From contig CP043547.1 of NCBI GenBank assembly GCA_009664345.1, positions 2,570,709-2,634,708 of the forward strand: DNA of 64,000 nucleotides. The letters are read 5' to 3'. The DNA comes from Planctomycetales bacterium 10988. Lineage in GTDB: Bacteria > Planctomycetota > Planctomycetia > Pirellulales > Pb10988. Position 1 is the first letter of the stretch. The number at the start of each line of letters is the position of its first letter. This document shows, one piece after another, positions 50,600 through 62,435 of this stretch. A program made the translations under genes and the position numbers. The notes under the pieces are model-generated. The model was not told where the DNA came from. It made no database searches and worked only from the letters and a program-made list of their open reading frames with translations.

Positions 50600-53500
50600 T
50601 TAACCATTAGGGCGTTGGCGAGCTGGCGGACCACGTCGAGTTTGCTCAGGAAGTAAAAAATCTGAATCCGTTCCTAATAGGTCGGGAAAACGTTCTTGAA
50701 TGTTTCGAATATCCTCTTCTCCACCATCGATCTGCAGCCGATTGATCAGAGATCGTCCCGCCCGGGCAATACACTGATCAACATAGCTTTCTTCTACCAT
50801 ATTGAACTCCCCTTCTTCCGCTAACTTTTCCACGGTATCGAAGAGTTCATAGGCGAGAAATTCTCCTTCATAAGCATCGAGGTCCGAACCATTCCGGAGT
50901 AAGTGTTGGGCTAGATTGGATTCGTGGTGAAGAACCAGAAGATTCGCGAGCCGTTCATTCGGATAAATTTCAATATACTTGTGTTGATTTTCAACCGCCT
51001 TGGTGAAATATTCGCGTGTACGTTGATAATATTCCTCACGCTCCTCCGGGTCCTCCGCAGATCTGAAAAGTTGGTTGTGATAGGCCCCTAAGGCGTGAAA
51101 CACGCTAGTTTTCATGGCCCAATACTTAGGAACCTTGGGATTTGCCTTCAAGAGAATATCGACATTTTTCAACGACAATTCCTGACGATCCTTCAATAAA
51201 TCCCCGTAAGAGCTGCTCGACATCAACTCATCAAGTCGGAACCCACCGAATGCTTCACAAAGAGCAAAGCGATATTTTTCCACGGTCGGGAATTCTTGCA
51301 CCAACTCATTCAAGATTTCAATCGAAGAAGAGAGGTCATCTCCATAGTATCCTACCGAACTTTCGCGTAGACACAGAGCATATAGATAGCGGATATCAAC
51401 ATCATCCGGATAGTCTTTGAGTAGCTCCTCCAAGATTTCTACAGCAGAAACAATCTTCTCTCGCTTCAAGAGACGGCTCGCAGGAACACCTTGAGGGGCG
51501 CCCGGAGTCTCATTTCCTCCTGGCCCAGGTCGAAATTCGCCGGGACGGAACGGGCGATTGCCGCCCCCCCCTGGATGTTGATTAGGGCCGCCCAGGGGAC
51601 GTCTCGACTCCGATGTCGCGAACCTATATGGATCGTTTTGTTCATTATTGGGATGAGAAGGGGGAGCATTTGGGCCAGAACCGCCCCTTTCCCCTTCATA
51701 GTAATCCTCCGCGTACCATTCTTCCGCGCTGGGATAATCGTCTTGATTATCCTCTCCCGATTCTCTTCTAGGCGGAGGCCCGCCGAAGTTCTCCTGCCGA
51801 CGCGGGGGTGGATAGCCTTGGCGGGGTCCATAGCCCCCGGGTCCTTGATTGCCGGCCATCTCCCGCGGTCGCGGAGGCAGCCTACGAAAACCTCCCGGAC
51901 CTTGGCCTCGAGGCCCTTGCCCCGGAGGTCCTTGTCCGAACTCTCCCTGAGCTAACGGCCCCTGACCCGGAGGGCCTTGACCAGGCAAACCTTGCCGCCC
52001 CCCTTGACCTAACTGTCCTATCTTTCCTTCAGAGAGGTCTGTTCCATCCAAAAGATGATGAACTCCCGGCAAGATATGCGGATTCTGAGGGGAGTAGCGA
52101 CGGCCTTGAAAATAGAATGTCTTCGCAAGATGAAACTGAATTTCTTTAAAGAGTTCGCGATCTTCTTCGGAGATTTCATCTTTCAGTGAAATCAAAATAT
52201 CACTGGCCTCCGTGAACTTCGCACTTGCTTTGCTGGCGTTATATTGATTCCAATTCAACATCCCCAGCGAGCTTTCGATGGAGGCCAAGGCAAGCTGATT
52301 TTCAGGATTCGGAGGCAAGGATTGGTACTTGGAAATGGCTTCCCTGTAAGCTTCCTCCGCCTTTGGAATATTTCCAAGCTGTTGATAGATGTCTCCTACT
52401 TTTCGCTGGGACAAGGCCGAAAGCGTTTGAAGTTCTTCGTCATCGAGTTCCAGCTTGGCGAACTCCTCAAAACGGGGCAATAACTCCGTGAGAAGGCTGG
52501 CCGTTTCCGAACTCAAGGTTGCCTCGGTCGGCTTGACGATTTTGTTCCCCTCTTCATCAAAGGTGACTTCTTGCGGAATTTCTTCCAAGTTGTCTGGAGC
52601 AAATCGCTTGAGCAAGTTGTTGATCGTTGAATAGGAGATTTGGGCGGCTTTGGATAACCGCATGGCATTATAATTGGCGGTCTGAAGGTTCTTCTTGGCT
52701 TCGCGTTCACTCGCTTCCGCTTCTTCCTGCAAGACTTCCGCTTTTTGACGTAAGATGAGTTCTTCTTCCAACCTTGCCATGGTGTCAAGGTTCGATTTCA
52801 CCCCCAGACCTACAAGACCGAAGGCCAACAAGATCGTAGCAGCCGAGAGAACCGCCAATGCGGGGTGACGCACACTCCAACGCCACAGCCGCTCGGGCAC
52901 ACTCGACCGACGGGCTCGAATGGGACGCCCATCTTTGTACCGCTCTAAATCATCCTGCATCTCCGCCGCAGTCGCGTAACGTTGCTTAGGCTCTCGGGCG
53001 ATCGATTTAAGGATAATCGTTTCCAGGTCTCGGGGGAGATCGGGAGCGAGCTTCCGAGGAGCGATCGGTTCGCCATCGGTGATCTTTTGGATCAGTTGCG
53101 AATGGCTACTTCCTTCAAATGCCGGCTTGAGGGTAATCAATTCATAAAGTGACAAGCCAAGAGCATAGATATCCGCGTGAATACCCGCGACACCGGAAAA
53201 CCGCTCGGGAGCCATATACCGCAGGGTTCCCACAACATCCCCGGTGAAGGTTAGCCCCTCTTGTTCAAGTGCCTTGGCCAAACCAAAGTCGGTGATCCAG
53301 AGCACTCCTTGATCATCAAGCAGCAAGTTGGCTGGTTTGATATCACGGTGCAAAACCCCCTGTTCGTGAGCATAAGCGAGCGCGGAAGCTGCTTGGATTC
53401 CCAAATCGGCAACCTGCCGATAATAGGTTTTTCCTCGGGTTCCTTTGGACGAGTCCCCTTTTGAAGAAGAAAAGACTCGCTTCAAAGCGTTTTGCGGAAC

Positions 53501-54598
53501 CTTCTTCGTGGCGGCTTGTTCAAACTCGGAATCGAACCCCGGCGCACGGAGAGTGGTCTTTTCCCCATTGACGATAGGTTTGTTGGAGCCTGCATTTTCA
53601 TAACTAAGCGAAATCAACCGACCGCGGGCGGAAGTGACATCCTGCTCGTCGGAGGGCAGCTGGGATTGAAATTGCTCCGTCTTATCGGATTCATAAAGAG
53701 GAATGACCTGATCAGGATTGGGCTTGCTGTCGCTGGATTGAACTCCGGTTGCTTGCCCGGTGAGATCATTATCAGAAAGTTGAACCTCTTGGTCTGCCTC
53801 GCCTTCGGGCTCTACCGTGGTGACGGCGGTTTGGGAGCCTTCCGCAGGCGTTCTATTTTTGGATTTCGGGAAGAGTCGATCATGCGTATCGGTCGGTGTT
53901 TCCGATTGAATCCGCGTATGCGTGTCGTCTGCCTTTGTGAGATCGCTCGGCTCCAGCAATTTTTGCACAAGCCGAGTCAGCGAAGCGGGATGGTTTTCGG
54001 AATAGTCTTCCTTTGCTAGAGCAGAGACCAGACAATTCAAGCCCACACCGGGAATATACCGCATGACGTAATAGTGCCAGCCGTCTTGCTCTCCCACCCC
54101 GTAAACAGGGACGATATGCGGATGCTGGAGTTTCCCAGCCATCTGGGCTTCCCGGCGGAAGCGTTCCAAATTTTGCCCATCGAGGGTGGACTGACGAGGA
54201 AGTAATTTCAAGGCAACACGGCGATTGAGTGTCGTTTGTTCTGCTTCATAAACGATCCCCATCCCCCCACGGCCAAGTTCGCGGAGCAGATGAAAGTCAC
54301 CGAGTTGCTTGAGTTTTTTTTGAGAGTTTGTGATTTGTTTTTGCAACTTCTCCTCTTCATCGATCTGAACCTTGAAGCCTTCCAAGGCAGCGACGACGGG
54401 GAAGAGTTCGCGAATCTCCGAGGCACATTCTGGATATCGTTTTTCATAGTCCAGAATTCGGGCAGGGGCTCCTGCGCGTAATTGCTCTAAGAAAGCCTCG
54501 GCCAAAACTTCAACGGGCACTCTTCGTTTCTGGGGGTCCGAACCGGTTGATTGAGTCTTCGAGGGCATTCCTTGCACTCGGCTACGATTCTCTTTCAT
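50600..54598 (-). CDS. Giant Ser/Thr protein kinase with interrupted kinase domain, membrane helix, TPRs and Gly/Pro/Gln-rich segment
   Basis: The 1332-residue product has the glycine loop GRGGMG (109-114), K131, HRD (417-419) and DFG (437-439), so the kinase should be active. An insertion of roughly 200 acidic, Ser/Thr-rich residues (about 190-395) sits after the hinge, between the lobes. A transmembrane helix near 595-620 (ALAVLSAATILLAFGLVGLG) is followed by a coiled coil, TPR-like helices (about 720-860), and a low-complexity stretch rich in GQGPPGQGP and PPRR (about 880-1040). More TPR-like helices end the protein. The sigma factor gene lies 20 bases upstream. Such pairs occur in planctomycetes. 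Confidence 0.92.
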   Translation of the reverse strand: MKENRSRVQGMPSKTQSTGSDPQKRRVPVEVLAEAFLEQLRAGAPARILDYEKRYPECASEIRELFPVVAALEGFKVQIDEEEKLQKQITNSQKKLKQLGDFHLLRELGRGGMGIVYEAEQTTLNRRVALKLLPRQSTLDGQNLERFRREAQMAGKLQHPHIVPVYGVGEQDGWHYYVMRYIPGVGLNCLVSALAKEDYSENHPASLTRLVQKLLEPSDLTKADDTHTRIQSETPTDTHDRLFPKSKNRTPAEGSQTAVTTVEPEGEADQEVQLSDNDLTGQATGVQSSDSKPNPDQVIPLYESDKTEQFQSQLPSDEQDVTSARGRLISLSYENAGSNKPIVNGEKTTLRAPGFDSEFEQAATKKVPQNALKRVFSSSKGDSSKGTRGKTYYRQVADLGIQAASALAYAHEQGVLHRDIKPANLLLDDQGVLWITDFGLAKALEQEGLTFTGDVVGTLRYMAPERFSGVAGIHADIYALGLSLYELITLKPAFEGSSHSQLIQKITDGEPIAPRKLAPDLPRDLETIILKSIAREPKQRYATAAEMQDDLERYKDGRPIRARRSSVPERLWRWSVRHPALAVLSAATILLAFGLVGLGVKSNLDTMARLEEELILRQKAEVLQEEAEASEREAKKNLQTANYNAMRLSKAAQISYSTINNLLKRFAPDNLEEIPQEVTFDEEGNKIVKPTEATLSSETASLLTELLPRFEEFAKLELDDEELQTLSALSQRKVGDIYQQLGNIPKAEEAYREAISKYQSLPPNPENQLALASIESSLGMLNWNQYNASKASAKFTEASDILISLKDEISEEDRELFKEIQFHLAKTFYFQGRRYSPQNPHILPGVHHLLDGTDLSEGKIGQLGQGGRQGLPGQGPPGQGPLAQGEFGQGPPGQGPRGQGPGGFRRLPPRPREMAGNQGPGGYGPRQGYPPPRRQENFGGPPPRRESGEDNQDDYPSAEEWYAEDYYEGERGGSGPNAPPSHPNNEQNDPYRFATSESRRPLGGPNQHPGGGGNRPFRPGEFRPGPGGNETPGAPQGVPASRLLKREKIVSAVEILEELLKDYPDDVDIRYLYALCLRESSVGYYGDDLSSSIEILNELVQEFPTVEKYRFALCEAFGGFRLDELMSSSSYGDLLKDRQELSLKNVDILLKANPKVPKYWAMKTSVFHALGAYHNQLFRSAEDPEEREEYYQRTREYFTKAVENQHKYIEIYPNERLANLLVLHHESNLAQHLLRNGSDLDAYEGEFLAYELFDTVEKLAEEGEFNMVEESYVDQCIARAGRSLINRLQIDGGEEDIRNIQERFPDLLGTDSDFLLPEQTRRGPPARQRPNG

Positions 54599-54618: not shown

Positions 54619-55269
54619 TTAGGAGGTTCCCTTGAGAGGGAGAGGAAACGAAAGGTCGGAGAATACTGTTTTCATACGTTTGATTGCTCGAATGTATCGC
54701 ATGCTAGCCGCCTTCTGGGAGATTCCCAAAACTTCGGCTACCTCACTGTTGGATAATTCCTCAAAGTGCCGCAAGGAAAGCACTTCACGGTCTAACGGAT
54801 CAAGTTGTTCCAAGGTCTCAAGAAGATGCTGGCGAAGTTCTTTTCGCATAGCAGCACCACTAGGGGTAGATATCTTTCCAGCCAAGTGATCGCATAAGGA
54901 AAGAGAACTTGATTCAGGGCAAGTTCCTTCCGAAAAGGAACGATCACGGCGAGCGTCACGGATTTGGGCACCCAGATGACGACGATGCACATCGATCATC
55001 GTTTGCCCAACAATCAACCGTAACCAATAAAGGACCGATTTCTCTTTATGAAGAGTTAAATAGTGGTCTAAACGGTTCGAGGCGGCGAGGAAGGATTCTT
55101 GGAGTAAATCCTCAGGGTCTACCCTTCCATTGAGCCTAGGATCTAAACGAAACTTGATCATCCGGAGTAACCGCTCACGCTCTAAAGAAAAGAGGGCGGC
55201 TAGGGCTTCTTCCTCTCCATTTTGCAAGCGAGTTACCCAGGATTTGTGCAACTCTGAATGACTATCCAC
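54619..55269 (-). CDS. ECF-type RNA polymerase sigma factor paired with the kinase
   Basis: The 216-residue product has region 2 at about 37-105 (GRVDPEDLLQESFLAASNRL, then the DH..RHLG part) and region 4 at about 150-205 (LDPLDREVLSLRHFEELSNS, then EVAEVLGISQKAASMRYIRA). It belongs to the planctomycete ECF groups encoded next to Ser/Thr kinases. It is the first gene of a two-gene operon with the kinase. Regulation by phosphorylation through the kinase instead of a classical anti-sigma factor is likely from the family's known context, but is inferred here. Confidence 0.9.
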   Translation of the reverse strand: MDSHSELHKSWVTRLQNGEEEALAALFSLERERLLRMIKFRLDPRLNGRVDPEDLLQESFLAASNRLDHYLTLHKEKSVLYWLRLIVGQTMIDVHRRHLGAQIRDARRDRSFSEGTCPESSSLSLCDHLAGKISTPSGAAMRKELRQHLLETLEQLDPLDREVLSLRHFEELSNSEVAEVLGISQKAASMRYIRAIKRMKTVFSDLSFPLPLKGTS

Positions 55270-55800: not shown

Positions 55801-56700
55801 ATGTCCGCCCCAGTATCGCCCTCAGGCCCATCGTCCCTCGATCGTTCCAAGCTCGATTTGGAAATCGGAGTGATTTATACCTACGAACGTTCGTGGATGG
55901 ACCCGCTCTTGGCGACGATGCGGGATTCGTTGGGAGACCATCGGGCGGGACTGCTCCTGGTAGATAATCGCTCAGGAGAAGATGTCCGGGAGTGGGAAAC
56001 ATACTTTCCTTCCACTAAAGTCATTCAGAATGCCTCTCGATTAGGCTACGCCGAGAATTTAAATCGTATTCTCGCCGCTTCGAAGGCCCCTTTAATATTA
56101 CTTTTGAACACGGATATCTATTTTCAGCCCGAAAATCAATGCCTTGCCAAGATGATCCGCTTTATGCATGAGCATCCAACCTGTGGATTGAGTACCTGCC
56201 GGGCGTATCATCCTGACGGAACCTATGGCTATCCCGCGCGAAAATTTCAATCACTGCGGGCAATCGCCGGACGCCGATTGGGCCTGGAGTTCTTATTTCG
56301 CGGTGATGTCGATGATTACCTTTTCCGCCATCGTGACCCGGAGGATACTTTCGAATGTGATTGGGTTTCGGGCTGTTGGATGTTGGTCCGTCGTGAGACC
56401 TTCGAAACGATCGGCGGCTTCGATACGATCTTCGGGAAGTACTTCGAAGATGTCGATTACTGTTTACGCGTGCGTCAGGCCGGTTGGCGAGTCATGATGC
56501 ACGGCCAAGGATTCTTCTATCATTACGAGCAGCGTGCCAGCACCAACTTGTTCACCAAGGATGCTTGGCAGCACGGCAAGAGCTATCTGAAATGGTTACG
56601 CAAATGGGGACCGAATCCACAGAAGGTCATTGATCGTGCCCCCAACAAGCCTCCCGTCGCCCCCCTTGCTACTTCCAAGAAAAAACGAAAAGCTGCCTAG
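55801..56700 (+). CDS. Family 2 glycosyltransferase
   Basis: The 299-residue product has the GT2 (GT-A) fold: LLLVDNRSGED with nucleotide-sugar contacts, RLGYAENLNRIL, the DxD-type LLNTDIYF near residue 102, VSGCWMLVRRETFETIGGFD, and the acceptor-side FGKYFEDVDYCLRVRQAGW. This is the rhamnosyltransferase-like subgroup that builds polysaccharide or O-antigen. No membrane helix. It is tail to tail with the rhomboid-like gene, sharing the CTAG at 56697-56700 as both stop codons. Confidence 0.93.
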   Translation: MSAPVSPSGPSSLDRSKLDLEIGVIYTYERSWMDPLLATMRDSLGDHRAGLLLVDNRSGEDVREWETYFPSTKVIQNASRLGYAENLNRILAASKAPLILLLNTDIYFQPENQCLAKMIRFMHEHPTCGLSTCRAYHPDGTYGYPARKFQSLRAIAGRRLGLEFLFRGDVDDYLFRHRDPEDTFECDWVSGCWMLVRRETFETIGGFDTIFGKYFEDVDYCLRVRQAGWRVMMHGQGFFYHYEQRASTNLFTKDAWQHGKSYLKWLRKWGPNPQKVIDRAPNKPPVAPLATSKKKRKAA

Positions 56701-57773
56701 TTGGTCCTCTCTTCTGTACCCGTTGAATCTTCCGTCGTGTCGGATTCCTCCGCGTTGGACTCTTCGGGCGATTCTTCCATACTTTCCTGCGAACCCGATT
56801 CGTCCGAGTCTGGCTTCGTACTCTGCTTGAGTTCGGCCTCTTGCTCTTTTTCCATTTCTTTCAACATGTCATGGAACTGCGATTTGGATTCATCGAGAGA
56901 AACCGCCCGCTCGAAGGCCGCTTTCGCCTGTTGAGGCTCTCCCGATTTACGATAGGCCAAGCCTAAATTATAGTGCCAGATCGCCTTTTCAGGCTGAAGC
57001 TCTACGGCTTTCGAAAAGAACTTAACCGCCGCCGGATACTCTTCTCGATCGTAGGCTCGCCGTCCCAGGGTGTTATAGTCATTGTCCGCCCCGCCACCGA
57101 CTTTGAGAAAAGGACGCCCATAGGTCGCTCCCATGAAGATCCCCAGATGCAGAACCATCGCAATAAACGCAATGATTGCTTGCTGACGAGATCCAAAAAG
57201 AACGGCCCAACCGAGCAGCCCACCACTTAAAAAACCAACCAGATGAGCAACATTCGGGGCCAGCAAACTTCCCGTAACCGTCAAAAAGATTGAAGCTAGA
57301 AACCAAATCCCTAGCACCATCGCCAAGCTTCGATCGACCAATAGGCTATACGCTGGCCTGGCCATTCCCATCAAACCAATGAAAGCAAACTGTCCATAAA
57401 CGACTCCGCCCAATCCAATCGATCGGGTCGCAATCGCGTCTTGCCCTGCCGCGGATAAAGTCGCCAGCCACAGCATCATTGCCAACGTACGCAGCGCTCC
57501 AATCTGCTTTTCCAAAAAGGTTCCAAACATCCACCAGAAAAACAGATTGATGACCAGCGGAACGGCCCCTTCATGAAAAAACATCGAAGTGACAAATCGC
57601 CACGGCTCACCGTACCAAGCCAAAATATTCATCTCGAAGAGCTTCGGTGAGATTGGAAACTCCACCAACTGCTGGTTGATCTTCCACAAAGTCGCCAGTA
57701 GTGAAAGGATGACAACACTCCATGTGAGTGGATATTCCCGAATGGTTTGAAAACGTGGCAAAGGGGTCGACAT
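56697..57773 (-). CDS. Rhomboid-family membrane protein lacking the catalytic serine, with TPRs and acidic tail
   Basis: The start is placed at the ATG at 57773; a TTG at 57818 is also in frame. The 358-residue product has about six membrane helices and rhomboid landmarks: FHEGAVPLVINLFFWWMFG with conserved N76, and APNVAHLVGFLSGGLLG with catalytic H177. At the GxSx position the sequence is GLGGVVYG, so the nucleophilic serine is glycine (G122; codon GGC). It is therefore expected to be protease-dead. Residues about 240-310 form TPR-like helices, and the last 50 are very acidic (SDESGSQESMEE and similar). A role as a scaffold or client-binding pseudoprotease is inferred. Confidence 0.88.
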   Translation of the reverse strand: MSTPLPRFQTIREYPLTWSVVILSLLATLWKINQQLVEFPISPKLFEMNILAWYGEPWRFVTSMFFHEGAVPLVINLFFWWMFGTFLEKQIGALRTLAMMLWLATLSAAGQDAIATRSIGLGGVVYGQFAFIGLMGMARPAYSLLVDRSLAMVLGIWFLASIFLTVTGSLLAPNVAHLVGFLSGGLLGWAVLFGSRQQAIIAFIAMVLHLGIFMGATYGRPFLKVGGGADNDYNTLGRRAYDREEYPAAVKFFSKAVELQPEKAIWHYNLGLAYRKSGEPQQAKAAFERAVSLDESKSQFHDMLKEMEKEQEAELKQSTKPDSDESGSQESMEESPEESNAEESDTTEDSTGTEERTN

Positions 57774-57958
57774 GAAAGGGATCACTTTCTTCCAAAATGT
57801 TAAAAGTCTGGCCAACAAGAATGACCACTCATGTTATATTACAATATTTTATTCCACATTCATATTTAGTACTTCTCTTACTTATACTGTAAACGTAGAA
57901 TGCGAATACGTTTTTAATTTTCTCAGCTTAGTCTATCAACAGAAAGGACGATTGAACA

Positions 57959-58174
57959 ATGTGGGACAAATTAAAAAAAGCGGCAACGGATTATGTTAAA
58001 AAAGAAGTAGAGATCATGGAAGAAACCCGCCGGATGGCAGAGGATGATCCTACCTTCGGTCAAGATTATGACATGGGTCGTTACACTGATCGAGCGTACT
58101 ACAACCAAAAGAAGTCAGAGGAGAAATTAAAAGAAATTTATACAGCTGTCGTAAAAAAACGTACCGATAACTAA
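57959..58174 (+). CDS. Small charged helical protein, 71 residues, unknown function
   Basis: The product begins MWDKLKKAATDYVKKEVEIM and ends in KKRTDN. It is amphipathic and charged, with a central DPTFGQDYDMGRYTDRAYY segment. No signal peptide or membrane segment. The start ATG follows AGAAAGGACGATTGAACA, a good ribosome binding site. The upstream 140 bases are strongly AT-rich. Together with the gene at 58603 it forms the third pair of small charged proteins in this window. No family was recognised. Confidence 0.65.
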   Translation: MWDKLKKAATDYVKKEVEIMEETRRMAEDDPTFGQDYDMGRYTDRAYYNQKKSEEKLKEIYTAVVKKRTDN

Positions 58175-58602
58175 TAACGAACTTGATCTCAACCTGCGGG
58201 TTGAATGAAGAATAGTTTAAGAGCCAGTGGTCAAAGCTATTCAAAACCAGGTAAGAACCTGGAAAAAGTGACACCCAATTTACTTTGGCCACAAACTCTA
58301 AAAAATGAAGTGTCCAGAATGTTTTGCTAGGACTTCTTTATTGATGTCTATTAGAAAAGCTTCTTAGGACAGTGAAAAGAACTCTATTCAGAAGTACATT
58401 CTCAAGCAGTCTTGCCTCTCATTGCACTTTATCTTTCTCTTTGATTGAGATGGTTTGATTCTTCAACCTCTTGATTCTATTTTCGTAAGAGGGTTCTAAA
58501 TCTGACACTCTCCACTGACATACATTTGAACCCTCTGCCTAGTGATCCAATTAGATATTCGCTAATCTTCTTCGTTAAACTTTTCCTTTGAAGGATATCA
58601 CT
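58175..58602. other. Intergenic region, no gene seen
   Basis: The 428 bases include a small hairpin around CCAGGTAAGAACCTGG (58247-58262) but no coding frame or clear terminator. The CTTTGAAGGATATCACT just before 58603 is the next gene's ribosome binding site. Confidence 0.3.
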
Positions 58603-58821
58603 ATGCCTGTCGATCCCAACAAGTTTAAAAAACACTTGGAAAAGCTCTTGGATGAGAAATATGGGAAAGGGAATCCTATCCCTAAAAAAGATGCCGCTGC
58701 GATGACAAAAGAATTCTCAAGCTTTATTAAAAAAGCTTTTGTTGTTGGACGAAAAACAGAAGAGAAAAAGATTAAAAAAGAACTGGATAAATTGGCTAAG
58801 AAAAAAGAGAAAAGTAAATAA
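58603..58821 (+). CDS. Small lysine-rich protein, 72 residues, unknown function
   Basis: The product begins MPVDPNKFKKHLEKLLDEKY and ends in KKKEKSK. About a third of the residues are lysine, with an invariant-looking NPIPKKDAAAMTKEFSSF centre. No signal peptide or membrane helix. The start ATG is supported by GAAGGATATCACT. A hairpin terminator follows about 65 bases after the stop, which supports a real transcription unit. The opening MPxxxxKFKK resembles that of the small protein at 48553, perhaps by composition only. Confidence 0.68.
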   Translation: MPVDPNKFKKHLEKLLDEKYGKGNPIPKKDAAAMTKEFSSFIKKAFVVGRKTEEKKIKKELDKLAKKKEKSK

Positions 58822-58945: not shown

Positions 58946-59971
58946 TTAGGAAGATTGCGTTTGTGTTTGGGATTGTTTTCCAGTGTCTTGTCGCTGGACC
59001 ATCGGTGCGGTCGAAGTGGAAACTTTTCGTAAGGCAAAGAAATTATCGTAGATCGATTGCCCGACTTGATTCAATTTCATTTGGAAATCATCAATAAACT
59101 CATGTAGCCCCCGAGCGATGATGTCATCGATCAAGGTATAATCCAATTCCGCCCTCAAGCGACCAATCAACTGTTCCGAACGATTGCTGAAAGTCCCAAT
59201 CGGTGTTTCGGTGATATTGTGCAAAGAGTTTTCTGCATGAATTAAACAGAACCGCATCGACCGAGGAAAGGCCCGATCAAGAATCAAAAAGTCAGCGACT
59301 TTACTTGGAACCAAGCGCCCATGCGATTTACGATACATCTCCAAGGCACTCGCGGATTGCAACAATGCCGACCACTGCACGATATCCAAGGGTGTTCCAA
59401 CATCTTGAATCTTCGGCAGGAGCAAATAATACTTCACATCGAGAATCCGCGAGGTTTTGTCCGCACGTTCCAGCAAGCGACCCAGGCGGGCAAAGTGCCA
59501 ACCTTCACTATGTGACATCGTCGTATCGGTCACCCCAATCAAGAGGTGACTACGGCTTTTGACCGAATCATAAAACGTCACAAAGTCCGCGGTATGATCC
59601 GTTCCCCGCTTCGCTCCATCTAATACAAAGAGATGAAATTTATTGATTTCTTCCCACATTGCGGAAGAAATATTTTCACGCACGGTTCGGGCATTTTCGC
59701 GGGCTCTGGCGACACAACTCAAAATCGAATTCGGGTTTTCTTCGTCAAAAGTCAAAAAGTGTAAGACGTTGTGGCGAGTCGCCTTGTCATAGCGAGCACT
59801 GAAATCTTCTTGATCTCCCGCGGTAAAGACCAACGGTTCCCACTGCTCTCGCATGGCATTGTCGAGATCGAGCATAAGATTTTGATTCACATCGATAAAC
59901 CGGGCGACGTTCTCGGCCCGTTCGATATAACGACTCATCCAGAAGATACATTCTGCCACACGGCTTAACAT
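58946..59971 (-). CDS. Alpha-E domain protein
   Basis: The 341-residue product is helical throughout. It opens with MLSRVAECIFWMSRYIERAE (1-20), the signature start of alpha-E proteins, and includes ARFIDVNQNLMLDL and SHSEGWHFARLGRLLERADK (about 160-190). Alpha-E proteins are encoded beside circularly permuted ATP-grasp enzymes and are thought to take part in a peptide or amino-acid ligation system. The ATP-grasp partner lies 186 bases upstream on the same strand. The transglutaminase-like third gene of many such loci is absent here. The C-terminal 25 residues are Gln/Ser/Thr-rich and probably disordered. Confidence 0.92.
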   Translation of the reverse strand: MLSRVAECIFWMSRYIERAENVARFIDVNQNLMLDLDNAMREQWEPLVFTAGDQEDFSARYDKATRHNVLHFLTFDEENPNSILSCVARARENARTVRENISSAMWEEINKFHLFVLDGAKRGTDHTADFVTFYDSVKSRSHLLIGVTDTTMSHSEGWHFARLGRLLERADKTSRILDVKYYLLLPKIQDVGTPLDIVQWSALLQSASALEMYRKSHGRLVPSKVADFLILDRAFPRSMRFCLIHAENSLHNITETPIGTFSNRSEQLIGRLRAELDYTLIDDIIARGLHEFIDDFQMKLNQVGQSIYDNFFALRKVSTSTAPMVQRQDTGKQSQTQTQSS

Positions 59972-60157
59972 AACCCGATGCCTTTATCTTGAAGTGTTCT
60001 AATGTAGGATCAATTTTATAGGGGAACCGTTTCCTGGTATTTGTCAAAGTGGGAAACGTTTGACCACAAGCACCAAAAATTCTCCGAGTTTTTGATTGCC
60101 TATTATAATCAATACTCTTTAACCAGACGATGAGCTATCCCCAAGAAATTGGCAAAG

Positions 60158-61591
60158 TTAGGAAGCAAGCACCCAGGTGTCTTTACTTCCACCACCTTGG
60201 GAGGAATTCACGACCATCGAACCTTTTTCCATCGCGACTCGCGTCAGCCCGCCGGGCAAGACATAAATATCTTTGCCGAAGAGGACGAACGGTCGCAGGT
60301 CCACATGCCGGGCTTCCAAGGCTCCGCCGCACAAGGTTGGAACCGTCGAGAGCGAGAGCATCGGCTGGGCGACATAATTTCGCGGATTCGCTTCGATTTT
60401 CTTACGATACTCTTCAATCTGTTCCTTGGTGGCTCGCGGACCAAACATAATCCCATAGCCTCCGGATTCGCTGGTCGGTTTGATCACTAGGTCTTCCATA
60501 TTTTCCAAAATGTACTTTTTGCCTTCATCCGTCCCGGCCAAGTGCGTCGGCACGTTGGAAAGAATCGCGTCTTCGCTGAGATAGTATTTGATCATGTCGG
60601 GAACAAAGGCATAGACCGCTTTGTCGTCGGCAATTCCAGTCCCCGGCGCATTGGCCAAAGAAACATTCCCCGCGAGATAAGCATCGATCAATCCCGGCAC
60701 TCCCAACACCGAATCACTGCGGAAATGATGCGGATCGAGGAAGTCATCATCCACCCGGCGGTAGATCACATCCACACGCTGCAAGCCGCGGGTGCTTCGC
60801 ATATAAACATGTTTGTTTTGCGTGATCAAGTCGCTTCCTTGCACCAACTCGACGCCCATTTGTTGGGCCAAGAAGGAATGTTCAAAGTAAGCAGAGTTAT
60901 AAATACCCGGCGTCAGCACGACGACATTCGGATGAGCGACATGTTCGGGAGCGATGTCTTGCAGGGTTTCCAGAAGTCGTTCGGGGTAATCTTCCACCGG
61001 CAAAACGGTCAAGCCTTGGAAGACCTGCGGGAAGGATCGCTTCATCACTTCGCGATTTTCCAGCACATAGGAAACGCCTGAGGGCACCCGCATGTTATCT
61101 TCAAGAACGTAGATTTCCCCCTTTTGATCGCGGACCAGGTCGACTCCGGAAATGTGGGTCCAAACACCTTGCGGCGGGGTAAAACCTTTGAGGGGTTTGC
61201 GAAAGGCAGGCGAAGAAGCCATCAACCACTCGGGCACGACATCGTCTTGAATGATCTTCCGGTCGCCATACATGTCATGGATAAAGGCATTAATCGCTCG
61301 CACCCGCTGTTTGAGGCCGGCTTCGATATCTTGCCATTCAGAAAGGGGCAAAATACGCGGCACAACATCAAGCGGCCAAATCCGTTCGATCCCGGCATCC
61401 TGGCCGTAAACATTAAACGTGATGCCCATATTTCGCAGGGTGACTTGGGCATTCGATTGGCAGCGTTCGAGTTCGCCCTCGACAAGCCGTTCGAGCCGAT
61501 CCACAACGGGCTTCGTTTTGGTACGAGGCAGCCCTCCATTTTGGAACATCTCATCAAAGACTTTTTCGCACTGATAGGTGTCAAACTTCAT
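60158..61591 (-). CDS. Circularly permuted ATP-grasp enzyme
   Basis: About 477 residues from the ATG at 61591; a TTG 36 bases upstream is also in frame. Hallmarks of the circularly permuted ATP-grasp type 2 family are PLDVVPRILPLSEWQDIEAG, ISGVDLVRDQKGEIYVLEDN, VVVLTPGIYNSAYFEHSFLA, YRRVDDDFLDP, and the Lys-containing LVIKPTSESGGYGIMFGP near residue 385. The fold forms carboxylate-amine bonds using ATP through an acyl-phosphate. It is the partner of the alpha-E gene downstream. The acceptor and donor are unknown. A dispersed-motif copy lies inside the gene at 60506-60521. Confidence 0.93.
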   Translation of the reverse strand: MKFDTYQCEKVFDEMFQNGGLPRTKTKPVVDRLERLVEGELERCQSNAQVTLRNMGITFNVYGQDAGIERIWPLDVVPRILPLSEWQDIEAGLKQRVRAINAFIHDMYGDRKIIQDDVVPEWLMASSPAFRKPLKGFTPPQGVWTHISGVDLVRDQKGEIYVLEDNMRVPSGVSYVLENREVMKRSFPQVFQGLTVLPVEDYPERLLETLQDIAPEHVAHPNVVVLTPGIYNSAYFEHSFLAQQMGVELVQGSDLITQNKHVYMRSTRGLQRVDVIYRRVDDDFLDPHHFRSDSVLGVPGLIDAYLAGNVSLANAPGTGIADDKAVYAFVPDMIKYYLSEDAILSNVPTHLAGTDEGKKYILENMEDLVIKPTSESGGYGIMFGPRATKEQIEEYRKKIEANPRNYVAQPMLSLSTVPTLCGGALEARHVDLRPFVLFGKDIYVLPGGLTRVAMEKGSMVVNSSQGGGSKDTWVLAS

Positions 61592-62435
61592 GACCTGATC
61601 TCTTGTGAGTTTTATGGTGCAGGACAAATACTCAAGTCAATTTCCTATGGATTCTTCAGGATGACGTAGAGATGTCCCTCGCTTGTAGGATTCCGTTGAA
61701 CACATGTTTGGTGAGTCGAGATAGGAGAGGTTTCGCATTCAATACTTCAGATTAAGAAGGAAGCTGTCTCTATATCCCCCCTTTACTTCGCTTTCATTTC
61801 TCCGCCGTTCTAGGGGGGATTAGGTAGATATTCCAACTTGGTTATAAGAAGAAAAAAGAGGAATAGATAGGTAACTCCTTCTACTTGCGAAGAATTCCTC
61901 GGAAAATGATGATGAATAACAACGATCCTTGAAGTGATTCCGCCTAGGCTCTCTAAACCAAACATTGTTTGCAACACAGTTAAACCTGCAATCTTTATGC
62001 CACATATCTAAACGTATCTGCCCAGTTCCTCACCAATAAATCAAAAAACCCGCTGCACAGTGAACAACAAGCTCTTCCTTGGATGGAAACTTACTCAGAT
62101 TTCCCTTTCCAATGCGTCTTGAAGTGGCAACCTTGCCCAATTTCCAAGCACATTTCCACCGTTCGTTCCCTCCACAACTTCAAGCGTTGAACCTTTCGAT
62201 CTCTGCCTCATCAAAGGTTTGATAAATTCACATCAAATCATCGTACAAATATCTAAAGAGACACATTTTCTTTTCACGGAAGCTTCATTGGATTCGCTCA
62301 CATTAAGGACAAGGTTAATATTCTACTGAACACTGCATGAAGCTTTGATCAACAAACGGGGTCGAGTGTCTCCATTCCCGTCTCTTTCAAATCGAGCAGT
62401 CGTTCTCCTCTTCCTCTTTTGATCGAGGAAAGTCG
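61592..62435. other. Longest gene-free stretch, 844 bases
   Basis: This lies between the divergent ATP-grasp and GT4 genes. Short frames of up to about 60 codons exist but have no ribosome binding site or family resemblance. ATCAAAGGTTTGAT at 62210-62223 is a short inverted repeat, with another ATCAAAT nearby. No tRNA or clear terminator was recognised. The region could hold a long leader or an unrecognised small RNA. Confidence 0.35.

What the first reader, a model, noticed from the sequence alone, without database searches (positions are those of the whole stretch)
56697..57773. Bacterial rhomboid pseudoprotease with TPRs
The catalytic serine position reads GLGG (GGC codon) while the histidine and other rhomboid landmarks remain. 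TPR-like helices and a very acidic tail follow. Inactive rhomboids (iRhoms, derlins) are well studied in eukaryotes; a bacterial rhomboid-TPR protein without the serine would be worth describing, perhaps as a membrane chaperone or client receptor.
Basis: partly seen in the sequence, partly recalled or inferred. Interest (0 to 1): 0.58.

Follow-up and report, generated by a model that had tools for sequence, protein, structure and literature searches.

The report
Bacterial rhomboid missing its catalytic serine
One bacterium carries an intact gene for a membrane protease of the rhomboid family that has lost two of its cutting-site residues but kept its fold and a protein-binding tail, so it probably holds or delivers membrane proteins rather than cutting them.

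Summary
The minus-strand gene at 56697-57773 encodes 358 aa: rhomboid domain, seventh transmembrane helix, two TPRs, acidic tail. Aligned to GlpG, catalytic Ser201 is Gly122 and oxyanion-site His150 is Pro72; His145, Asn154 and catalytic His254 are kept. Among 63 distinct rhomboid ORFs examined from this organism and other Planctomycetota, all 62 others keep both Ser and His150. The nearest relatives (27-34% identity, same rhomboid-TPR architecture) are intact, so this is a lineage-specific loss inside an otherwise intact group. Of 22 highly conserved columns the protein keeps 17; three of the five lost lie at the active site. The frame is open; the branch is about three times the median length.

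Best reading: a catalytically dead rhomboid-TPR acting as a client-binding adaptor, as dead B. subtilis YqgP does for FtsH. Loss of serine proteolysis is close to certain; the adaptor role is inferred. Limits: a singleton (no other genome of its family is held), a low-confidence model of the rhomboid part, and no counterpart of YqgP's essential N-terminal domain. New variant of a known kind.

The parts
56697..57773 (-). rhomboid-TPR pseudoprotease gene (358 aa); an upstream TTG at 57818 would give 373 aa
   Evidence: Pfam Rhomboid and TPR
57201..57611 (-). rhomboid domain, residues 55-191
   Evidence: Pfam PF01694, 62.6 bits; GlpG E 2.3e-9; Foldseek top hits of a low-confidence model are GlpG and iRhom
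57573..57575 (-). His67 (GlpG His145), codon CAT, retained
57558..57560 (-). Pro72 (CCG) in place of the oxyanion-site His150
   Evidence: His in 62 of 62 other rhomboid ORFs
57546..57548 (-). Asn76 (GlpG Asn154), codon AAT, retained
57408..57410 (-). Gly122 (GGC) in place of catalytic Ser201
   Evidence: Ser in 62 of 62 other rhomboid ORFs
57243..57245 (-). His177 (GlpG His254, catalytic), codon CAT, retained
57120..57188 (-). seventh transmembrane helix, residues 196-218 (6+1 topology)
   Evidence: helix in both AlphaFold2 models, low confidence; mean hydropathy 1.26
56859..57071 (-). two TPRs, residues 235-305
   Evidence: Pfam TPR families; block pLDDT 78-96 over residues 231-320
56700..56858 (-). 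acidic tail, residues 306-358 (20 D/E, 4 K/R)

Best explanation
It is a rhomboid-TPR membrane protein that descends from rhomboid proteases with an intact active site and has lost serine proteolysis by replacing the nucleophile (Ser201 to Gly) and an oxyanion-site His (His150 to Pro). It most likely keeps the rhomboid client-binding function: the TM bundle captures transmembrane segments of client proteins, and the TPR domain, predicted to lie on the periplasmic side after the seventh helix, holds a partner or a client domain. The client is then stabilised or passed to a processive protease such as one of the genome's FtsH-type proteases. Shown by sequence: the domain content, both substitutions, retention of the structural landmarks, an open reading frame. 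Inferred: topology, client binding, and hand-over.
For: Both substitutions are unique among 63 distinct rhomboid ORFs inspected; in the other 62 the Ser and His150 columns are invariant, and His254 is kept in all 63. 17 of 22 columns conserved in at least 85% of the others are kept; the five lost are residues 72, 75, 122, 130 and 161, three of them at the active site. The frame is open, with codon usage at the low end of its neighbours' range (0.703 against 0.702-0.802, the neighbours being their own reference) and above its five other frames (0.619-0.684). The TPR domain is intact. Five tested relatives (L026, L027, L006, L060, L061) all have rhomboid + TPR, so the architecture predates the loss. 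The long end branch (1.52 against a median of 0.48) fits changed constraint. The genome has three loci with an FtsH-type M41 domain and three further rhomboids with Ser and His in place. Precedent: YqgP S288A, with C-terminal extracellular TPRs, still presents MgtE to FtsH and needs an unobstructed active site (PMC7231995, passages read).
Against: Singleton: no second genome of the family is held, so conservation of the dead state cannot be shown. YqgP's adaptor role needs its N-terminal domain, which is absent here (about 14 residues precede TM1). Deleting YqgP's TPR domain raised its activity and did not affect Mn activation, so a TPR role in adaptor work is not established even there. No shared neighbours with L026-L028 that would suggest a partner, and none of the six neighbouring ORFs tested with Pfam is a protease. 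The long branch also fits relaxation.
Confidence: 0.55

Rival explanations
1. A gene in early decay: catalysis was lost because it was no longer needed, and the rest is drifting towards a pseudogene.
For: End branch about three times the median; patchy presence of the subfamily; no relative with the same state.
Against: Open frame of 358 codons, intact TPRs, 17 of 22 conserved columns kept, three of the five losses at the active site; codon usage within the range of neighbouring genes.
Confidence: 0.2
2. A decoy or regulator of the genome's other rhomboids: it binds the same substrates without cutting them, or associates with the proteases, and the TPRs only localise it.
For: Three further rhomboids with Ser and His in place in the same genome; the rhomboid fold is kept. 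iRhoms inhibit rhomboid-dependent signalling (start of the abstract of PMC3149277, listing).
Against: L001 and L002 lie on another branch of the tree; no evidence of shared substrates.
Confidence: 0.17
3. It still cleaves, using another nucleophile (for example Ser118) with His177.
For: His177, Asn76 and the glycines around the nucleophile position are kept.
Against: Ser118 lies four residues upstream of the nucleophile position in an alignment to GlpG that has no gap from there to beyond the motif; His150 is lost as well. YqgP S288A is described as proteolytically completely inactive (PMC7231995).
Confidence: 0.04
4. Sequencing or assembly error at the active site.
For: AGC to GGC is a single transition; no reads could be checked.
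Against: Pro72 is CCG, two changes from either His codon, at a second active-site position, and Ile75 is a third substitution. The genome is one contig.
Confidence: 0.04

Closest known systems
Bacillus subtilis YqgP (GluP)
   Same: Bacterial rhomboid with C-terminal TPR domain; dead S288A mutant is an FtsH adaptor (PMC7231995, passages read)
   Different: YqgP is a working protease with Ser288 and a cytosolic metal-binding N-terminal domain needed for the adaptor role; the window protein lacks the Ser, His150 and that domain. The two sequences were not compared directly here.
Rhomboid-TPR proteins of other Planctomycetota (L026/L017, L027/L018, L028/L019, L006, L060, L061)
   Same: Rhomboid domain followed by TPRs; 27-34% identity for the four aligned
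   Different: All keep GLSG and His150
E. coli GlpG
   Same: Same fold family by sequence and by Foldseek hits
   Different: Ser201-His254 dyad present; no TPRs
iRhoms
   Same: Rhomboid fold without protease activity; iRhom1 and iRhom2 structures appear among the Foldseek hits
   Different: iRhoms have GPx in place of GxS and a luminal iRhom homology domain (PMC6451368, passage read); the window protein has GLG and no room for such a domain in loop 1
Derlins
   Same: Rhomboid-like pseudoproteases in membrane-protein quality control
   Different: No Der1 family among the Pfam hits at E up to 1; derlins work in eukaryotic ERAD

Membership tests
Rhomboid superfamily (fold) | Rhomboid domain profile and six-helix bundle | tested here: met
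   PF01694 62.6 bits; GlpG by sequence; the top 35 Foldseek hits are rhomboids, but the model is poor (pLDDT 54.7, pTM 0.57, rmsd mostly around 10 A)
Rhomboid protease (Ser-His dyad) | GxSG catalytic serine | tested here: not met
   GLGG, codon GGC; Ser in 62 of 62 others
Rhomboid protease (Ser-His dyad) | Catalytic His in TM6 | tested here: met
   His177
Rhomboid protease (Ser-His dyad) | His150 at the oxyanion site | tested here: not met
   Pro72
YqgP-like rhomboid-TPR | 6+1 TM helices followed by TPRs | tested here: met
   (helix assignment of low confidence)
YqgP-like rhomboid-TPR | Cytosolic metal-binding N-terminal domain | tested here: not met
   About 14 residues before TM1
YqgP-like rhomboid-TPR | FtsH interaction and adaptor activity | not testable with these tools
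   Three M41 loci exist in the genome; interaction unknown
iRhom | GPx motif and iRhom homology domain | tested here: not met
   GLG motif; about 33 residues between TM1 and TM2
Derlin | Der1 family profile | tested here: not met
   No Der1 family in the Pfam list at E up to 1

The most novel reading that the evidence does not exclude
A dedicated bacterial rhomboid pseudoprotease, derived from rhomboid-TPR proteases, that carries out only the adaptor half of a YqgP-like role: a naturally occurring bacterial parallel of the protease-to-derlin transition, independent of iRhoms and derlins.
Probability: 0.35. Interest if true: 0.65.

Novelty: new variant of a known kind. Interest (0 to 1): 0.42.

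Why it matters
The YqgP work showed that one bacterial rhomboid combines protease and adaptor roles and proposed that pseudoproteases arise when the adaptor half becomes the key one (PMC7231995, passages read). A bacterial protein of that architecture that has naturally lost the nucleophile and an oxyanion residue would be a test case for that proposal outside eukaryotes.

Tried and rejected
Close relatives: no other genome of the family is held. A first scan of named genomes found none; the second, with alignment A2, gave 33 loci, of which three (L026-L028) align along most of the protein and the other 30 through the TPR part. By RpoB the best full-length match is 76% identical and most of the 56 matched genomes lie between 69% and 78%, so no family stands out as near. 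Five of 7 genomes of family f2 gave rhomboids, all with Ser and His in place.

Other Ser-less rhomboids: a DNA pattern for Gx[A/D/E/G/V]G...Y[GA] plus AHxxG at this protein's spacing hit 5 of 396 genomes of the order. One is the window. The other four translate to non-rhomboid sequence, three of them with stops, and their loci have no rhomboid ORF. With Ser at that position the same pattern fits 36 of the 62 other ORFs, so it would miss about two in five, and any change to other residues or spacing.

Structure: two AlphaFold2 runs with only four sequences gave low confidence for the rhomboid part (pLDDT 59.2/pTM 0.39 for the whole protein and 54.7/0.57 for residues 1-226). Active-site distances were not measured.

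Synteny: no window neighbour is shared with L026 or L028; L027 shares only a weak hit to the kinase-like ORF.

Literature: the listings of the searches showed no paper on a planctomycete rhomboid or on a naturally Ser-less bacterial rhomboid. The library is partial. Kinch and Grishin 2013 was not looked for by id; Koonin 2003 is not held. That inactive bacterial rhomboids may be noted in such surveys is recalled, not checked. PMC2989971 (passages) reports all mycobacterial rhomboids with catalytic residues; PMC4467639 (passages) describes no inactive ones in the passages seen; PMC12615303 (passages) treats iRhoms and derlins.

Rows dropped before counts: TPR-only hits and ORFs without the Ser and His columns; identical proteins were collapsed. 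One search found 69 of 392 genomes with matches but gave loci for only 30 places, so the motifs of the other matches were not read. The genome's own rhomboid L003 is not among the 63; its GASG motif and His were read by eye.

Full report
What is there. The gene at 56697-57773 on the minus strand encodes 358 aa from an ATG; a TTG start at 57818 would add 15 residues. It has a Rhomboid domain (62.6 bits, cut-off 22.6) and two TPR stretches. AlphaFold2 gives seven long hydrophobic helices before the TPRs, of low confidence, and a confident TPR part (blocks of 78-96 pLDDT between residues 231 and 320). The last 53 residues hold 20 acidic and 4 basic residues.

Active site. phmmer aligns the protein to E. 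coli GlpG with E 2.3e-9 (the best chain, 4qnz, is the F146I mutant by its title). GLGGVVYG lies opposite GLSGVVYA, so the catalytic Ser201 is Gly122. The TM2 stretch HEGAVPLVIN lies opposite HISLMHILFN, so His150 is Pro72 while His145 and Asn154 are kept. NVAH lies opposite NGAH, so His254 is kept as His177. The codons are GGC and CCG. The oxyanion role of His150 and Asn154 is from general knowledge; PMC2989971 (passages) lists Ser201, His254, His145, His150 and Asn154 as rhomboid landmarks and says the last three are not essential for catalysis, so the Ser loss is the decisive one.

Relatives. The window's genome (G000, one contig of 6.65 Mb) is the only one held of its family. Protein searches of 57 relatives and 396 genomes of the order, and alignment searches of 392 genomes of the phylum and of three families (7, 2 and 119 genomes), had matches in 12, 16, 69, 5, 1 and 15 genomes; a scan of named genomes added L026-L028, titled Pirellulales or Planctomycetota MAGs. 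From all loci, 63 distinct rhomboid ORFs cover both active-site columns. At the Ser column 62 have Ser and one, the window, has Gly. At the His150 column 62 have His and the window has Pro. His145, Gly199 and His254 are present in all 63; Asn154 in 62, the window included. The four relatives aligned share 27-34% identity with it. Five relatives tested with Pfam have rhomboid plus TPR. In a quick maximum-likelihood tree the window falls in a set of 12 rows of this type (SH-aLRT 89, not starred) with an end branch of 1.52 against a median of 0.48; the place of so long a branch is unsure.

Loss pattern. Of 22 columns conserved in at least 85% of the other ORFs, the window keeps 17. The five lost are His150, the Phe three residues on (Ile75), Ser201, a TM4 Gly (Ala130) and a TM5 Cys (Ser161). 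Two other ORFs, L001 and L002 of the same genome, also miss five, but they belong to another branch and keep the catalytic residues. The open frame, intact TPRs and codon usage within the range of the neighbours speak against advanced decay, though without a close relative selection cannot be measured.

Is it a wider class? A pattern search for this active-site form with Ala, Asp, Glu, Gly or Val in place of Ser found only the window among 396 genomes of the order once four chance hits were read. With Ser at that position the same pattern fits 36 of 62 relatives. The finding is therefore a singleton at limited sensitivity.

Mechanism. The best guide is B. subtilis YqgP, a rhomboid with C-terminal extracellular TPRs. 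Its dead S288A form still presents MgtE to FtsH, and its active site must be unobstructed (PMC7231995; passages read, not the whole paper). The window protein has the same 6+1 plus TPR layout, and its genome has three FtsH-type M41 loci. I therefore favour a client-binding adaptor. Three things weaken this: YqgP's adaptor role needs an N-terminal domain that is absent here; deletion of YqgP's TPR domain raised its activity; and no partner gene is evident nearby. Neighbours with Pfam matches are a family-2 glycosyltransferase (convergent, overlapping by 4 bases), an ECF-type sigma factor, an Alpha-E protein and a circularly permuted ATP-grasp.

Verdict. Observation confirmed and extended; interpretation partly supported. 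It is a new variant of a known kind: an apparent rhomboid pseudoprotease inside an otherwise intact bacterial rhomboid-TPR group. The missing serine catalysis is near certain from sequence; function is inferred.

Noticed in passing
G000:C1:1939545, 5845913, 5373565 (L001, L002, L003): Three further rhomboids in the same genome with Ser and His motifs in place.
   Followed up: partly
56697-56700: The rhomboid gene and the convergent glycosyltransferase gene (55801-56700, +) overlap by four bases at their stop codons.
   Followed up: no
57959-58174 and 58588-58821 (+): Two small lysine-rich ORFs (71 and 77 aa) without Pfam match in the gap upstream of the rhomboid gene.
   Followed up: no
50600-54598 (-): Ser/Thr kinase-like protein by eye (1332 aa) with a long Gly/Gln/Pro-rich low-complexity stretch in its C-terminal half, beside an ECF-type sigma factor gene (54619-55269, -).
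   Followed up: no
58946-61627 (-): Alpha-E protein and circularly permuted ATP-grasp protein side by side.
   Followed up: no
L060, L062, L063: Intact rhomboid-TPR relatives of other families carry additional TPR stretches, so repeat number varies in this group.
   Followed up: no
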